In this document: positions 48,003 to 54,387 of the stretch, in pieces
Numbering within the stretch: position 1 is the stretch's first letter
Layout: each line of letters begins with the position of its first letter
DNA from: Methanobrevibacter millerae
Lineage (GTDB): Archaea; Methanobacteriota; Methanobacteria; Methanobacteriales; Methanobacteriaceae
DNA: 64,000 nucleotides
Assembly: GCF_900103415.1 (NCBI RefSeq)
Contig: NZ_FMXB01000003.1
Location: 48,522 to 112,521 of the forward strand
Direction: 5' to 3'
Program-made: the position numbers and the translations under genes
The notes under the pieces: model-generated
Database searches by the model: none
Told to the model about the DNA's origin: nothing
What the model saw: the letters and a program-made list of their open reading frames with translations, nothing else

Positions 48003-49082
48003 ATGAGTTTTAGGAAAAGACGTGTGCTGATGATGACTCCTTTATATATAATATTCGAGTTTTTTCTGCTTAAATATCTATTTTTGCTATTTTATCCTCT
48101 GGATGATTTGACGATTGCTTTAATGGCATTAATCCTGGGACTCATGAATGTGGGTTCCATGCTTTTAGAACTTAAAAAATCAAGGTTTATCACGCGTCTG
48201 TTAACGGAAATATTCGCAATATGGATATGGGCATCGATGATGTATCTCATTGAACTTGTAATCATTTATTCTGTCTCCATCTTTTTCCAACTGGATTATA
48301 CGTTAGTATTAATTATATTGGCTCTTGTTCCTATAATCGGAGTTTACGCATACTGGAAGGCTCATAATTTAGTTGTAAACGAAAGAACTATCGAACTGGA
48401 CAATTTAACAAAAGAAGTAAATGTGGTTCATTTATCGGACGTTCATTTCGGCGCCGTCAGATATAAAAAGATAATAAGGCAGCTTGCCGATACGTTAAAA
48501 ACCTTGGAAGATTCCTGTGAAGTGGCCATAATTTCAGGCGATATGGCGGACGGCTCATCGGTGGTTTTGGAAGACGATTTCATGCCTTTAAGTGAAGTCA
48601 ACATGCCGATAATATTCACGCCGGGCAACCATGACTATTATATTGGCCTTGAAAACGTCAAAAAGGCCTGCAGAAAAGCGGGAATTATTGTTTTAGACAA
48701 TGAGTCAACGCAAATCGGAGACTTGAACATCTATGGCTTGGCATACAGTTTCGACGATATTAACGCTCCAGGTATTGATGAGCTTAAAGGTGAAATAAAA
48801 AACGATAAGACAAACATCATGATTTACCATGTTCCTTACCTCTGGGAGGAGCACTCAAAAGCCGGTTTTGACATCCAGCTTTCCGGACACACGCACGGAG
48901 GCCAGTTCCATCCCGCAACCTGGTTCTGCCGTTTGCTTTACGGATACAACAGGGGACTATTCAAGGATGAAAGAGGCCATTACATGCACGTAACGACTGG
49001 AGTGGGCTCAATGGACCAGCCAATGAGGTGGGGAACCGACTCCGAAGTGGTGATACTAAGATTAAAGCATGCTCTCGTATAG
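48003..49082 (+). CDS. Membrane-bound calcineurin-like metallophosphoesterase (359 aa)
   Basis: Four N-terminal membrane segments (about residues 10-33, 36-55, 66-95 and 99-117) lead into a metallophosphoesterase domain of the YaeI/UPF0046 type. Metal-ligand motifs are present in order: HLSDVHFG (Asp146, His148), ISGDMADG (Asp180), FTPGNHDYY (Asn209, His210) and LSGHTHGGQFHP. The E. coli homologue YaeI acts on lipid A intermediates; here a phospholipid or nucleotide phosphate is more likely, but the substrate cannot be read. RBS GGTGT lies before ATG 48003. The last 21 bp overlap the convergent endonuclease IV-like gene. Confidence 0.85.
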   Translation: MSFRKRRVLMMTPLYIIFEFFLLKYLFLLFYPLDDLTIALMALILGLMNVGSMLLELKKSRFITRLLTEIFAIWIWASMMYLIELVIIYSVSIFFQLDYTLVLIILALVPIIGVYAYWKAHNLVVNERTIELDNLTKEVNVVHLSDVHFGAVRYKKIIRQLADTLKTLEDSCEVAIISGDMADGSSVVLEDDFMPLSEVNMPIIFTPGNHDYYIGLENVKKACRKAGIIVLDNESTQIGDLNIYGLAYSFDDINAPGIDELKGEIKNDKTNIMIYHVPYLWEEHSKAGFDIQLSGHTHGGQFHPATWFCRLLYGYNRGLFKDERGHYMHVTTGVGSMDQPMRWGTDSEVVILRLKHALV

Positions 49083-49898
49083 CTCTTTCATTTTCAAAGA
49101 ATCAATGTCCCTTAATGGCGTTTCACAGATGATGTTGGCTTTCCAGTCGTTGTCAATGAGATTGGCCAGCAAATCCTCGATTTGGGGTCCGTACTCATCG
49201 CTTTCATCCAAAGTGTGATGCTTTACCTCTCCGGCTCTGCTGTACTCGATGGTGGTGAAATGGCAGTGCAGGAGGTCAATGTCCAGCTTGTTTTCAATTG
49301 TTGAGAAAATGCAGTTGTAATCGTCCTTTTTGGTTAGGTATCCTCTTCCACGGGCATGGATATGGGCAAAGTCAATCGTAGGCTCAAAATGCTCAAAGCT
49401 TGCGCATAATTCAACGATTTCCTCAATGTTTCCCTGCTGAGTCCTTTTTCCGGTTGTTTCAGGAGCAAAGGTAAACTCCTCAATCCCTTCGGCTTCAAGC
49501 TCTTCAAAGAGGCGATTGATAGTCTGTTTGGAAATCTCCATTGCCTTTTCAGGCTTCCGGTTAGTGTAAAATCCAGGATGGAAAACCAGACGGTAGGCAC
49601 CCATCCATTCGCCGGCACGGGCGGTGGCTATGAGGTGGCCGATGCTTTTGTCAATCTTTTCGGATTCCTTTGCGCACAGATTAATATAGTAGGGTCCGTG
49701 CATGGATATCAGTATTTCAAACTTCTCGGATTCCTCTTTCAATATTCTGGCGGATTCCTCTCCAATCCTGACTCCGTAAGGGGACTGGTATTCGTATGAG
49801 TCAAGCCCGATTCGCTGTATGTATTTGGGGGCCTTGTAGGCAGCTCCCTTGTAGTTGACAGGACTTCCAGCAGGTCCAAAAAATACTTTGTTTTTCAT
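49062..49898 (-). CDS. nfo: Endonuclease IV-like (AP endonuclease 2 family) TIM-barrel protein (278 aa)
   Basis: Related to deoxyribonuclease IV, which cuts DNA at abasic sites. It starts FFGPAGSPVNYKGAAYKAP. ILISMHGPYYINL, RLVFHPGFYTNR, FTFAPETTGK, PTIDFAHIHARG and LLHCHFTTIEY provide the His/Glu/Asp metal ligands of the trinuclear zinc site. Methanogen members are often annotated as 'endonuclease IV-related', so a sugar-isomerase-like function is not excluded. The gene is convergent with the phosphoesterase (21-bp overlap). Confidence 0.82.
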   Translation of the reverse strand: MKNKVFFGPAGSPVNYKGAAYKAPKYIQRIGLDSYEYQSPYGVRIGEESARILKEESEKFEILISMHGPYYINLCAKESEKIDKSIGHLIATARAGEWMGAYRLVFHPGFYTNRKPEKAMEISKQTINRLFEELEAEGIEEFTFAPETTGKRTQQGNIEEIVELCASFEHFEPTIDFAHIHARGRGYLTKKDDYNCIFSTIENKLDIDLLHCHFTTIEYSRAGEVKHHTLDESDEYGPQIEDLLANLIDNDWKANIICETPLRDIDSLKMKELYESML

Positions 49899-49954
49899 AT
49901 CTTTACTATGATTTTGATGGTAATTATATTTTTTTTAAAAAATATTGTGAAAGA

Positions 49955-50239
49955 TTAGATGGAATAATATTCTCCTAATCTTTCCGCAATAATTTTTTGG
50001 ATTTCATCTTTCATCCGATGGTTCAAAAAAACATCAAGTCCATGATTTGTTTTTTTGTATCCCATTATCTTTTCGGCATGTAGTTTTTTAATTTCCTTGT
50101 GTATTTATTTACATGGGATTTCGGATAATTTGTTACATAGGTTGGTGATGGGTGTATGCTTTTTGTTAAAGTAATGCTTTTTCCACATGAAAAATAAGAT
50201 TTTTACTCTGATTTCATCAGAATTCCTATTTTTCGCCAT
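49955..50239 (-). pseudogene. Winged-helix regulator gene interrupted by an in-frame TAA
   Basis: On the minus strand, ATG (50239) opens a 44-codon frame ending KLSEIPCK, then TAA at 50107-50105. The same frame then continues without interruption for 49 codons to a second TAA at 49957-49955 (IHKEIKKLHAEKIMGYKKTN onward). The joined 94-codon sequence reads as one winged-helix domain: EIRVKILFFMWKKHYF first helix, TPITNLCNKLSEI helix, IHKEIKKLHAEKIMGYKKT third helix and wing. The stop falls between the second and third helices. It lies 5 bp after the 50245-50493 gene and completes a three-gene minus-strand locus. A point mutation, sequencing error or recoding are the options; decay is the simplest. 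Confidence 0.7.
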
Positions 50240-50244
50240 TTTAA

Positions 50245-50493
50245 TCAAATATATTTATCTAATAGTTTTTTTAATTCAGTTGCAGTTTTTTTATTTAAAA
50301 TAATTTGCATATCTGACTCATATATTATTTCTAAATCGCCTTGTTCATTGTTTTTTAATTTTTTGTTTACTGGTATTATCATAATTTCATCATCACTTCC
50401 GCCAACTCCTACATGGGAGATATTAACTACTTTGGAATTTGAGCTAATTCTTATCCCTTCTTTAGTAGGTACATTAAATTCTTGCTCATTCAT
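50245..50493 (-). CDS. Hypothetical protein of the second winged-helix locus (82 aa)
   Basis: Not recognised. A small acidic, beta-rich protein with KVVNISHVGVGGSDDEIMII in the middle and a C-terminal helix (LNKKTATELKKLLDKYI). The helix resembles the end of small regulatory or immunity-type proteins, but no family is evident. It begins 9 bp after the winged-helix gene 50503-50961, with GGTGAAAAT as ribosome binding site, so the two are coupled. A partner role for the regulator is inferred from position only. Confidence 0.6.
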   Translation of the reverse strand: MNEQEFNVPTKEGIRISSNSKVVNISHVGVGGSDDEIMIIPVNKKLKNNEQGDLEIIYESDMQIILNKKTATELKKLLDKYI

Positions 50494-50502
50494 ATTTTCA
50501 CC

Positions 50503-50961
50503 TTATTTTTCATCCATTAACATGAATTCAAAATTAATTAGTTTATTTGTATTGATAGAAGAAAACGTATAATTTTCCTTAATGTTTATTTCTTGTTCGA
50601 GAGCATCCAAATTTACATTGGGAGCAGATTCACTTAAATATAATTCTTCTTCTTCAATTGTAAGTTCATCAGATATTTCATCAGGCAATTTAATTTGTTT
50701 TTGATATTCTATTTCAACAAATTCTTCACTAATTGCCATTAATCCTTTAACAATGTTGGATTTAGAATTTAAACTAAATTTTGAATTTTTACATGTTATA
50801 ATTTCAATATCAACTAATTCATCTATGAAATTATTCAATGTTGACCTAGAAATCTCAGCACCTACGGCTATTTGTTGCTTTGTATGCTGAGAAAATGGCG
50901 TTGATATCATATAGTCAATTACTTTGACCTGTGGACAATTTCCAAAAATTTCTTTAAACAT
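50503..50961 (-). CDS. Winged-helix regulator with acidic C-terminal extension (152 aa)
   Basis: An N-terminal winged helix of about 80 residues (FGNCPQVKVIDYMI, then HTKQQIAVGAEISRSTLNNF and FIDELVDIEIITCKNSKFSL) is followed by an acidic tail (LPDEISDELTIEEEELYLSE) with no known fold. It resembles the small regulator at 4742-5008 in length of the core and in spacing. ATG is preceded by GAGGTG. The promoter has TAACGTCC on the coding strand (50993-50986), as in the 4.4-kb locus. It is followed by the 82-residue protein and the broken winged-helix gene. Confidence 0.7.
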   Translation of the reverse strand: MFKEIFGNCPQVKVIDYMISTPFSQHTKQQIAVGAEISRSTLNNFIDELVDIEIITCKNSKFSLNSKSNIVKGLMAISEEFVEIEYQKQIKLPDEISDELTIEEEELYLSESAPNVNLDALEQEINIKENYTFSSINTNKLINFEFMLMDEK

Positions 50962-51114
50962 AGCAACACCTCATGTATAAAAATTGGACGTTATCATAAA
51001 TAAATTTTTTCATCGTACAAATTTTAGACATTAATTTGAAGTGTAAATTCAATTCATGTCAGAGTTTTGAAATTAATCTGTGGTGTTAATTTAAAAAAAT
51101 AAATAATGGGGGAA
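50962..51114. other. Intergenic region with promoter of the second winged-helix locus
   Basis: 153 bp between the regulator (leftward) and the 3' end of gap (also leftward). It holds the minus-strand octamer TAACGTCC (50993-50986) beside a TATTTATG-type TATA element near 50996-51005. Nothing else was recognised. Confidence 0.4.
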
Positions 51115-52131
51115 TTATAAAATTCCCATTGCTTTGTTTGTTTTAGCTATTGATTTTTCGTTGTCGCTTTCCATTTCAAGAAGAGCGCGAATAGCATCGA
51201 TGTTTTCCGGAACAACGTCGGATTCCTGGTGCACGGCCTGCATGTAGAATAATTCGTTTCCGACGACATTGATGGATTCTCTCCATACCGGAATTTCGTA
51301 CAGGTCATTCCTGTTTCTGCCTAATTCCTTGGCGTATTCCATAAGCTCCGCTGTTGAACCGAGACCTGCTTCGGCGTCAACGACGATTACCCTTGAACGT
51401 TTTTCGAGTGCTTCAATGATTTCTTCGGTTTCCACGTCGTTGTTGATTTCAACCATGATGTTGTGCTGGTGCATGAGGGTTGTAGGCACGAGCAAAGCCA
51501 TTGTTGTAACGTCAATTCCTTTCATTACGGTCTGCACGTCCGGACCGTGGTGGGATGGCACCGTCGGAGGGTTAGGCACGATTGCGTTGATTGGACCTTT
51601 CTTGATTTCGGAAGGGTCTGATCCTCTTCTTACCATGACCGCCCTGACCTTTTTGATGTCTGCAATAGGGTCGATTGTGCTTAAGGTACGTGTAAGTCCG
51701 GTCGTGTTACAGGAAACGACTCTGGTGTAGTCTGCTCCGTATGAGTCGTCATAGTTTGCAATCGCGTTGAATGAAAGTCCTGTGAGGTCGTGGTCTTCTC
51801 CGCCCTGATAGATGGCCTTTACGCCTGCCTTTTTATACATTTCAAGGTTTTGAGGTCCGATGTTTCCAGGAGTACAGTCAACCACAACGTCAGCTTCCTG
51901 AATCATTTCTTCAACGGTTCCTGCTATTTCGATTCCGGCTTCCTTAAACAGTCCTTCCCTTTCAGGAATTCCGATGTATAAAGGATAGTCCTTTTCTTCA
52001 ACGGCAGTCCTTGCTTCGTAGTTTGGTCTGGTCTTACTCACACCAATTATTTTCATATCGTCTTGAGCTGAAACAGCATCAGCAACTCTTTTTCCTATAG
52101 TTCCATATCCATTAATTGCAACAGATTTCAT
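51115..52131 (-). CDS. gap: Glyceraldehyde-3-phosphate dehydrogenase, archaeal type II (338 aa)
   Basis: Interconverts 1,3-bisphosphoglycerate and glyceraldehyde 3-phosphate with NAD(P)H, for gluconeogenesis together with PpsA. The nucleotide-binding start is [18 protein letters not shown]. The catalytic cysteine is Cys141 in [33 protein letters not shown] and [11 protein letters not shown] are archaeal-type phosphate and active-site segments. Length (338) matches archaeal GAPDH. A minus-strand TATA candidate (TTTTATATAAG) lies near 52177-52187. Confidence 0.96.
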
Positions 52132-52306
52132 TTTAATCCCTTAAAAATTATCTATGCTTAAAGTTTTATTTTTTAACTTATATAAAATTTGATATTTGAG
52201 TTTATATTAAAAAAAATTAATTTTTAAATAGTATAATTTATATAATCTATATCAATAAACTCAAACATTCGAGTTTTTTTTAAAAAAAATTTAAGGTGAA
52301 CATATT
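52132..52306. promoter_or_regulatory. Divergent promoter of gap and the DUF4013 gene
   Basis: Plus-strand TATA candidate AATTTATATAAT near 52234-52245. AAACTC (52257-52262) and GAGTTT (52271-52276) form a 6-bp inverted repeat near the expected start of the DUF4013 transcript, followed by a T-run. AAGGTGA at 52292-52298 is the ribosome binding site. Confidence 0.4.
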
Positions 52307-53020
52307 ATGGAAATAGTTGATATTTTAAAGGATGCAATGGTTTATCCGGCACACAACATTACCTCTTTAATACTTTATATCGCTTTGGGTATTATTGCAG
52401 GTATCGTTGGCGGAGGAACCATTGTGGGTATGGCCATGGGTTATGCCGACAAAAACGTATTTATGCTTTTAGGATCAGGACTTATAGGTATTCTCATCTT
52501 TCTTGTAGTGGCTTTCGCAATTTCAGGTTATGAACTGGATATCATTAAATACGGTATCATCAGAAGCGACGAAGGACCTAGAATCGACTTTTTAAGACAA
52601 TTCATTAACGGTGCAAGGTTATTCCTGGTACGTATTGTCTACTACCTCATTCCGGTTATAATTTCTTCAATTTTAAGCATTATCTTCCAGCACTGGGTAA
52701 CTACAATAATAAGCATTATCCTATTGGTTATTTTTGCCCTTGCCGAATTCATGGCGGAGTGCAGATTAGCTAAAACCGAAGATCTGGTCTATGCCTTATC
52801 AATTAAAGATGCAATTGAAGACATTACAAGAGTCGGTATCATAAATCTCTTGTTATTCATCATTATTGTTGCAATCATCGCTGTCGTATTGCTTTTAATT
52901 CTTGCATTCGTCATGAAATGGAATTCATACATCGGCGGATTACTGATGGGTATTGTTGGTGTATACTTGGTATTCTTCATTGGTAGAGCAAGCGGTTTAT
53001 TATACTCAAATGTGGAATAA
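52307..53020 (+). CDS. DUF4013 family membrane protein (237 aa)
   Basis: A polytopic membrane protein of unknown function. About six hydrophobic segments are visible, among them SLILYIALGIIAGIVGGGTI near residue 20, LGSGLIGILIFLVVAFAISG near 56 and LLLFIIIVAIIAVVLLLILA near 184. The central conserved element LRQFINGARLFLVRIVYYLI is like those of the DUF4013 proteins common in Methanobrevibacter. Monocistronic, with its own promoter. No binding motif is visible. Confidence 0.7.
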   Translation: MEIVDILKDAMVYPAHNITSLILYIALGIIAGIVGGGTIVGMAMGYADKNVFMLLGSGLIGILIFLVVAFAISGYELDIIKYGIIRSDEGPRIDFLRQFINGARLFLVRIVYYLIPVIISSILSIIFQHWVTTIISIILLVIFALAEFMAECRLAKTEDLVYALSIKDAIEDITRVGIINLLLFIIIVAIIAVVLLLILAFVMKWNSYIGGLLMGIVGVYLVFFIGRASGLLYSNVE

Positions 53021-53126
53021 ATAAACCACAATTTTTTCTTTTTTTTAATTATTTTAATATTTTAACCGAATTTGCCAATAGCATATTAAACATTTATTTA
53101 TCATGTAGTCAAATATTATGTATGTC

Positions 53127-53143
53127 GGTAGACATTTGCTACC
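53127..53143 (+). promoter_or_regulatory. Inverted repeat at the amt-glnK promoter (candidate NrpR site)
   Basis: GGTAG (53127-53131) and CTACC (53139-53143) form a perfect inverted repeat with a 7-nt spacer, just after the TATA candidate AAATATTATGTAT (53111-53123). The overlapping ATGTCGGTAGACAT (53123-53136) is also a perfect palindrome. Position and GGTA/TACC half-sites fit a nitrogen repressor of the NrpR kind, which controls glnK-amt in other methanogens; the exact consensus is quoted from memory. Confidence 0.5.
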
Positions 53144-53178
53144 TATAATTATTTTTTTTTAATTTTTGTCGTGATATT

Positions 53179-54387
53179 ATGGTTTTAAGTACAGGAAATA
53201 CTGCTTGGATGCTCGTTGCAACCATTATGGTTTTATTGATGAGCGTTCCGGGCATTGCATTTTTTTACGGAGGATTATCGAAAAAGAAAAACGTTTTAAA
53301 CTCAATGTTTCTCTCATTGATAGCTTTTGCAATAGCCAGTCTTATATGGATTTTCTACGGCTATCAGATGTCCTTTTCACCTGATTCATTTTTCGGATTC
53401 GTTGGAATACCACAAAGCCTTTTCATGGAAGGAATTGGCGTTGATTCACTTACAGACACCATTCCGACATTCGTATTTGCGGGCTTTGAGCTGACCTTTG
53501 CGGCATTGACAGCGGCAATCGTTTCAGGTTCCATTGTCGGAAGGATGAAAACGAAAGCGTGGGTTGTCTTTACTATTTTATGGGTCAGCCTGATTTACAT
53601 TCCCGTCTGCCACTGGATTTGGGGCGGAGGATGGATGATGAGTCTGGGTGCAATCGACTTTGCCGGAGGAATCGCAGTTGAGGTCAACTCAGGTTTTTCA
53701 GCCCTTGCGCTGGCACTTATTCTGGGAAAGAGAAGGGACACTTCACTGCTCCCGCATAACCTGGGATATTCCATTTTGGGCGCAGGATTTCTGTGGTTCG
53801 GATGGATGGGATTCAACGGAGGATCAGCACTGGCAGCAAACGGCCTTGCAGGTTCAGCAATCCTGGTTTCAAATACCGCAGCAGCGGCCGCAATGATAGT
53901 GTGGGTAATTCTGGATATGATTAACATAGGAAAGCCGACTGTATTGGGCGCAATCACCGGTGCGGTTGCAGGACTTGTTGCCATTACTCCGGCATCAGGA
54001 TACGTTCAGCTTTCAGGCTCACTGGTAATAGGAATTGTCGCATCACTGATTTCCTATTTTGCGGTTTACAATCTCAAAAGCAAATTCGGATACGATGACG
54101 CTTTGGATGTATTCGGTGTCCACGGACTTTCAGGAGTCTGGGGACTGATAGCTACGGGGCTTTTCGCATCGCCTGCAATAAACGGCGTGGCAGGATTGTT
54201 CTACGGCAATCCGCATCAGCTGACGGTTCAGATTATTGCCGTTGTTGCAACAATGATTTACACTTTCGGTGCAAGCCTGATAATAGCAAAGGCGCTTGAC
54301 ATGACTATGGGACTTAGAGTAGATGACAGAGAGGAAATTGCTGGTCTGGATACGGCATTGCACAAGGAATCCGGTTACAGATTATAA
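53179..54387 (+). CDS. amt: Ammonium transporter Amt (402 aa)
   Basis: An eleven-helix trimeric channel for ammonium uptake. The N-terminus lacks a cleaved signal, with [20 protein letters not shown] as the first helix followed by [10 protein letters not shown]. The pore twin histidines are in [10 protein letters not shown] and [27 protein letters not shown] and [11 protein letters not shown] are also characteristic. The cytoplasmic tail is short. glnK follows by 19 bp, the classic pair in which GlnK plugs the channel when nitrogen is plentiful. A palindrome at the promoter suggests nitrogen control. Confidence 0.96.

What the first reader, a model, noticed from the sequence alone, without database searches (positions are those of the whole stretch)
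49955..50961. Second winged-helix locus has a regulator gene with an in-frame TAA between HTH helices
Seen: on the minus strand a 94-codon frame (50239-49955) is broken only by TAA at 50107-50105; both halves are open in the same frame and read as one winged-helix domain. It follows a winged-helix gene (50961-50503) and an 82-residue protein (50493-50245) in tight array, making two regulators and one unknown in one small operon. Inference: a recent nonsense mutation. Methanogen recoding uses UAG (pyrrolysine), so readthrough of UAA is unlikely.
Basis: partly seen in the sequence, partly recalled or inferred. Interest (0 to 1): 0.5.

Follow-up and report, generated by a model that had tools for sequence, protein, structure and literature searches.

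The report
Broken regulator in a three-gene module
In a methane-making archaeon, a small DNA-binding gene is cut by a recent stop codon; it is the third gene of a three-gene regulatory module that sits at different places in related genomes, and there too this gene is broken far more often than its two partners.

Summary
In detail: minus-strand frame 50239-49955 has one in-frame TAA (50107-50105). The gene is a winged helix (model pLDDT 90). The stop falls at the start of the recognition helix, so the 44-residue product cannot be a normal DNA binder. This is a recent nonsense mutation; I found no support for readthrough.

The larger result is the module: winged helix (wH, 152 aa), DUF3467-like protein (p82) and small winged helix (p94). 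It occurs in 16 of 67 genomes of the genus (21 copies) and in other Methanobacteriaceae. The window copy lies between gap and nfo, which are neighbours without it in 28 of 28 relatives that could be compared. In the genus p94 is broken in 10 of 21 copies, p82 in 0 and wH in 1. A conserved pair of TGT-N11-ACA sites precedes wH and looks like an autoregulatory operator; in the window each site has one mismatch. The module's role in the cell is unknown; my mechanism is inference.

The parts
49955..50239 (-). p94: small winged-helix gene broken by an in-frame TAA (codon 45); third gene of the module
   Evidence: sequence; relatives across the stop; winged-helix model, TAA read as Y for folding only
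50105..50107 (-). in-frame TAA; the position is variable in ten intact copies (L, Y, H, Q, E, K)
50245..50493 (-). p82: DUF3467-like protein, second gene
   Evidence: ORF; 8 of 19 family members match PF11950 weakly, not the window protein itself; profile comparison, prob 95.1, E 3.4e-8
50503..50961 (-). wH: winged-helix protein with an acidic tail, first gene
   Evidence: ORF; HTH_45 E 0.0035, below cut-off; profile match to winged helices of DUF3467 operons, E 7e-8; charge
50974..50990 (-). operator-like site 2 (TGT-N11-ACA, one mismatch in the window), start at -29 of wH
51014..51030 (-). operator-like site 1 (TGT-N11-ACA, one mismatch in the window), start at -69 of wH
49935..51095 (.). 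approximate extent of the insertion between gap (51115-52131) and nfo (49062-49898); exact ends not defined
   Evidence: relatives lack it; no convincing terminal repeats

Best explanation
The broken frame is a recent pseudogene of p94, the third gene of a three-gene regulatory module (wH, p82, p94) that sits between gap and nfo only in this lineage among those compared. Shown by computation: homology across the stop, the empty site in relatives, conserved paired sites before wH, and breakage of p94 far more often than of its partners in the genus. Inferred: wH dimers bind the two TGT-N11-ACA sites, 41-42 bp (about four helical turns) apart around a TATA-like stretch, and repress the module's own promoter; p94 is a second DNA binder acting on other targets or at the same control region; p82 modulates one of them; the acidic wH tail may hold the basic p94 in check. 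Loss of p94 removes its output but leaves wH and p82, which are kept. In the window the stop removes the recognition helix and the wing.
For: Relatives cross the stop; 9 of 9 invariant columns after it kept, no acceleration; winged-helix model with pLDDT 90.3; p94 broken in 10 of 21 copies of the genus, p82 in 0, wH in 1 (Fisher 0.0005 and 0.0036; 0.0034 and 0.020 if two judgement calls are counted as intact); gap-nfo without the module in 28 of 28 comparable relatives; at least one exact TGT-N11-ACA before wH in 37 of 40 loci, shuffle mean 1.7, maximum 6; sites also kept where p94 is broken, both exact in L088 and L098; wH tail charge median -16.5, p94 +9.
Against: No binding, expression or phenotype data. 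The window is one of the three of 40 loci without an exact site, so its own regulation may be weakened. p82 has no known fold match and the window p82 alone does not match DUF3467. In 22 complete modules outside the genus p94 is intact in all 22, so repeated loss is a feature of this genus, not of the module. L101 and L103 share one deletion that their wH relationships do not explain.
Confidence: 0.72

Rival explanations
1. The module is toxin-antitoxin-like: p94 is a costly effector, wH with its acidic tail (perhaps with p82) the antidote and autorepressor; loss of the effector is selected while the antidote is kept.
For: Small adjacent genes, paired control sites, patchy placement and an empty site, p94 broken in 10 of 21 copies against 0 and 1 for the partners, opposite charges.
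Against: p94 looks like a winged-helix DNA binder, not a known toxin fold; no PADLOC match for the module proteins; p94 intact in 22 of 22 complete modules outside the genus; no toxicity data.
Confidence: 0.15
2. p94 is still made in the window by readthrough of UAA, or shifted frames in other copies are made by programmed frameshifting.
For: Downstream residues are conserved in the window and after the shared deletion of L101 and L103 (pN 0.17, pS 0.77 over 20 codons). A weak degenerate tRNA-like gene has the anticodon loop CTTAAA.
Against: ARAGORN called no TTA, CTA or TCA anticodon at the 77 tRNA places (150 of 224 first-look candidates had been scored); the RNA around the stop is not specially folded (z -1.08); lesions differ between copies, including a lost start codon and a truncation.
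Confidence: 0.04
3. The TAA is a sequencing or assembly error, or a polymorphism absent from most of the strain.
For: Only one genome of this species was at hand; no reads were available.
Against: The genome is 99.99% complete with 0.94% contamination. p94 is broken in nine other copies of the genus while p82 and wH in the same assemblies are nearly always clean, so a real lesion is the more likely reading.
Confidence: 0.06
4. The 44-residue product is itself the functional protein and the rest is leftover.
For: The first half is open and has a start codon.
Against: It lacks the recognition helix and wing; the second half is as conserved in the window as expected; 14 of 21 copies in the genus keep an open frame over most of the profile, none ending at this position.
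Confidence: 0.03

Closest known systems
Archaeal operons of winged helix + DUF3467 (PF11950) + a ~93-108-aa third gene (L131, L134, L136, L250)
   Same: Same order and two layouts, third gene in line or divergent; wH and p82 profiles match theirs. Of 15 uninterrupted third-gene matches, 14 lie beside a DUF3467 match, one of them in the window's own genome (G000:C11).
   Different: p94 matches their third gene only weakly (prob 12.7); p82 does not reach the DUF3467 cut-off. Function of those operons unknown.
MarR/PadR/TubR-type small winged-helix DNA binders (fold level)
   Same: p94 model resembles them, e.g. 9ilk, 4rs8, 4asn, 7wjp (TM about 0.6-0.7 by query)
   Different: No PDB match reaches E 0.001; no sequence match of weight
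Type II toxin-antitoxin operons (general idea, from memory)
   Same: Small adjacent genes, apparent self-control sites, one gene lost first
   Different: Three genes, no toxin fold, no toxicity data

Membership tests
Pseudogene by nonsense mutation | Homologues continue past the stop | tested here: met
Pseudogene by nonsense mutation | No functional readthrough product | not testable with these tools
   No stop anticodon called, but no proteomics
Winged-helix DNA-binding proteins (p94) | Winged-helix fold | tested here: met
   Model pLDDT 90.3 with helix and wing order; fold neighbours. DNA binding not tested
DUF3467 (PF11950), for p82 | Score above the curated cut-off of 25 bits | tested here: not met
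   8 of 19 members match at E up to 5, best 0.0029; the window protein does not. Hence 'DUF3467-like', not a member
DUF3467 (PF11950), for p82 | Profile similarity to accepted members | tested here: met
   hhalign against five DUF3467-type proteins, prob 95.1, E 3.4e-8, 71 columns; three of them scan above the cut-off
Toxin-antitoxin system | A toxic gene product neutralised by its partner | not testable with these tools
   No PADLOC match for module proteins; no known toxin fold
Virus or plasmid cargo | Relatives in viral, plasmid or phage collections | tested here: not met
   p94 profile in viral contigs: 22 pattern matches, none confirmed; window wH in plasmids and phages: no match. The other genes were not searched there
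Programmed recoding | Suppressor tRNA or recoding signal | tested here: not met
   the degenerate CTTAAA-loop gene is the one doubtful case

The most novel reading that the evidence does not exclude
A new class of small self-controlled archaeal conflict or selfish module (winged helix, DUF3467-like, winged helix) whose third gene is a DNA-binding effector costly enough to be switched off again and again in gut methanogens while its controlling pair is kept; at one site (L101, L103) the switch may be a recurring, possibly reversible, frameshift.
Probability: 0.15. Interest if true: 0.6.

Novelty: new variant of a known kind. Interest (0 to 1): 0.38.

Why it matters
It turns one stop codon into a testable evolutionary pattern: a regulator module placed at differing sites in related methanogens, with ready operator candidates, in which one DNA-binding gene is lost repeatedly while its partners are kept. 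It also gives DUF3467 a conserved operon setting; the single held paper that names DUF3467 (PMC11986949, one passage seen) lists its function as unknown.

Tried and rejected
Readthrough of UAA: no stop anticodon called and no unusual RNA fold. A second p94 in the same genome: none with the profile; the weak hit (E 0.25, contig C34) was taken as chance. Virus, plasmid or phage origin: with the limits given in the membership table. Known defence system: no PADLOC match for wH, p82, or an intact p94. A wider regulon for the exact double site: 60 places in 67 genomes against 48 for the reversed-pattern control; 5 of the 60 lie before module copies (G010, G012, G020, G021, G023); the other 55 were not placed one by one. 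Fold match for p82: model only pLDDT 72, best hit E 0.21. The MjaI endonuclease match of p94 (E 0.0058, below cut-off) occurs in 1 of 14 members and was taken as chance. Terminal repeats of the insertion: none convincing. p94 against wH: no similarity. Base composition: the module is 25-30% GC against 45-50% in gap and nfo, but other nearby stretches (52000-53249) are 26-38%, so this is no proof of foreign origin. Literature searches: DUF3467, 1 paper; DUF2283 with DUF4258, none; DUF2283, none; Methanobrevibacter with pseudogenes, transcriptional regulators and winged helix, none; stop codon readthrough with archaea, UAA and methanogen, 5 listed, none opened. One notebook entry says '28 of 29' for the empty site; the right figure is 28 of 28, one further contig being too short.

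Full report
WHAT IS THERE. The frame 50239-49955 (minus strand) has one in-frame TAA at 50107-50105. It follows 50961-50503 (wH, 152 aa) and 50493-50245 (p82, 82 aa) with 9 and 5 bases between genes. I call the third gene p94.

RELATIVES. In 67 genomes of the genus the module occurs in 16 genomes, in 21 copies (integrity). Two of the copies (L090, L091, genome G011) share their flanks and may be one locus assembled twice. Named records include Methanobrevibacter MAGs, M. thaueri and a Methanosphaera; in Candidatus Methanoflexus (L127) only wH was found, in Candidatus Methanobinarius (L121, the same contig as L237 by length) a decayed wH and p94 without p82. The p94 profile matches 46 of 138 genomes of the family. 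Thirteen relatives align with the window across the stop at 37-58% identity; three of these (L010, L011, L006) come from copies that I later count as broken near the start.

THE STOP IS RECENT. In ten intact copies position 45 holds L, Y, H, Q, E or K, so the stop sits at a variable residue. All 9 invariant columns after it and 9 of 11 before it are kept in the window. With one tree fixed for the three genes, the window's terminal branch is 0.102 of the total for p94, 0.128 for wH and 0.231 for p82: p94 has not evolved faster.

WHAT IT REMOVES. The protein read through the stop is predicted as a winged helix (pLDDT 90.3; helices 3-20, 31-37, 43-55; strands 59-64, 67-72). PDB fold neighbours are small winged-helix proteins, though none reaches E 0.001. 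The stop at residue 45 removes the recognition helix and the wing.

READTHROUGH. The own genome has 77 tRNA matches (150 of 224 first-look candidates were scored). ARAGORN on 31 loci that cover them called no anticodon TTA, CTA or TCA; one locus (L282) gave no call, and two degenerate genes have two-base anticodons, one with the loop CTTAAA. The RNA around the stop is not specially folded (z -1.08).

ONE OF MANY BREAKAGES. Of the 21 copies in the genus p94 is broken in 10: the window (stop); L088, L095, L098, L100, L101, L102 and L103 (frameshifts); L096 (no usable start); L104 (truncated). p82 is broken in 0 of 21, wH in 1 of 21 (L102, start region). Judgement calls: L087, L093 and L094 must start with TTG or GTG and were counted intact; L088 keeps a frame from an internal TTG and L096 lacks only its start, and both were counted broken. 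Fisher p is 0.0005 against p82 and 0.0036 against wH; with L088 and L096 as intact (8 of 21) it is 0.0034 and 0.020, and dropping L091 changes little. By length, p94 is 29% of the three genes and holds 10 of 11 broken-gene cases (p 3e-5; 9 of 10 with L101 and L103 as one, p 1e-4). The partners serve as a control for assembly error, since they lie in the same assemblies. In 22 complete modules outside the genus, p94 is intact in 22, but several are near-identical. Left out of these counts: L105, L106, L127, L220-L224, L227, L233, L237, L244-L246 (incomplete modules or fragments), of which L223 and L237 have a broken p94, and L105, L227 and L246 are p94 fragments; also L107 and L130.

AN ODD PAIR. 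L101 and L103 carry the same one-base deletion in p94, yet L101's wH is closer to that of the intact L099 (dN 0.10) than to L103's (0.16). Codons beyond the deletion, read apart, still look conserved between L101 and L103 (pN 0.17, pS 0.77, 20 codons). Parallel deletion, recombination or a reversible switch remain open.

INSERTION. The gap gene was found in 62 of 67 genomes of the genus; 30 of the 64 matches came with DNA, one being the window's own. Of the 29 others one contig is too short (L300). In 28 of 28 nfo follows gap without the module: within 31-57 bases in 26, 180 in L298 and 573 in L301, where a different 114-aa gene lies. The other copies of the module sit elsewhere: four share one site (L085-L088), four share another (L097, L099, L101, L103), the rest lie in differing surroundings apart from L090/L091. 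Five genomes hold two copies (four if L090/L091 are one). Searches of viral contigs (p94) and of plasmids and phages (wH) found nothing.

PARTNERS. p82 is DUF3467-like: 8 of 19 members match PF11950 weakly (best E 0.0029), the window protein not. A profile comparison with five DUF3467-type proteins gives prob 95.1, E 3.4e-8; wH against the winged helices of those operons prob 94.6, E 7e-8. Those operons have the same build, with the third gene in line or divergent. Their third gene matches 18 of 150 genomes; of 15 uninterrupted matches 14 lie beside a DUF3467 match, including one in the window's own genome (G000:C11:42137-42573), and three genomes show interrupted or partial ones only (G001, G011, G119). 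p94 itself matches that third gene only weakly (prob 12.7).

CONTROL SITES. I took 40 wH-bearing loci (left out: L091, L102, L215-L219, L221, L222, L234, L244). Before wH, 37 of 40 have an exact TGT-N11-ACA and 32 of 40 have two or more with up to one mismatch; shuffles (a Markov resample, which keeps dinucleotides only on average) give means of 1.7 and 6.5, maxima 6 and 13. The commonest layout is about -70 and -29, 41-42 bases apart around a TATA-like stretch. The window is one of the three without an exact site (with L106 and L127); its two sites have one mismatch each. Copies with a broken p94 keep the sites (both exact in L088 and L098), which points to wH as the binder; that is inference.

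MECHANISM. My best reading is that wH represses its own promoter at the paired sites, p94 is a second DNA binder, p82 modulates, and the acidic wH tail (median -16.5) may hold the basic p94 (+9) in check. No step of this has been tested.

VERDICT. The stop itself is ordinary. The one-sided, repeated loss within a conserved module that changes places is the part worth following.

Noticed in passing
   Followed up: partly
G000:C11:42137-42573 (own genome, outside the window): A DUF3467 match followed by an uninterrupted third gene of the related operon type.
   Followed up: partly
G000:C5:83.1-84.1 kb, C5:89.5-91.7 kb, C8:49.5-50.9 kb: 77 tRNA matches in the genome, many for an archaeon (from memory), in large arrays of 9, 17 and 11 ARAGORN calls, including two degenerate genes with two-base anticodons. 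A provirus or mobile element was not looked for.
   Followed up: no
L103:6239-6496, L101:2610-2972, L220:1457-3958: Other small genes beside the module: DUF3781 in L103 (94.8 bits), DUF2283 in L101 and L220, a weak DUF4258 match in L220. They suggest islands of small two- or three-gene units.
   Followed up: partly
L101 and L103 (p94): The same one-base deletion in two copies whose wH genes are not closest relatives.
   Followed up: partly
L301:2528-2872 (-): A different 114-aa gene lies between gap and nfo in genome G003, so this spacer has received small genes at least twice.
   Followed up: no
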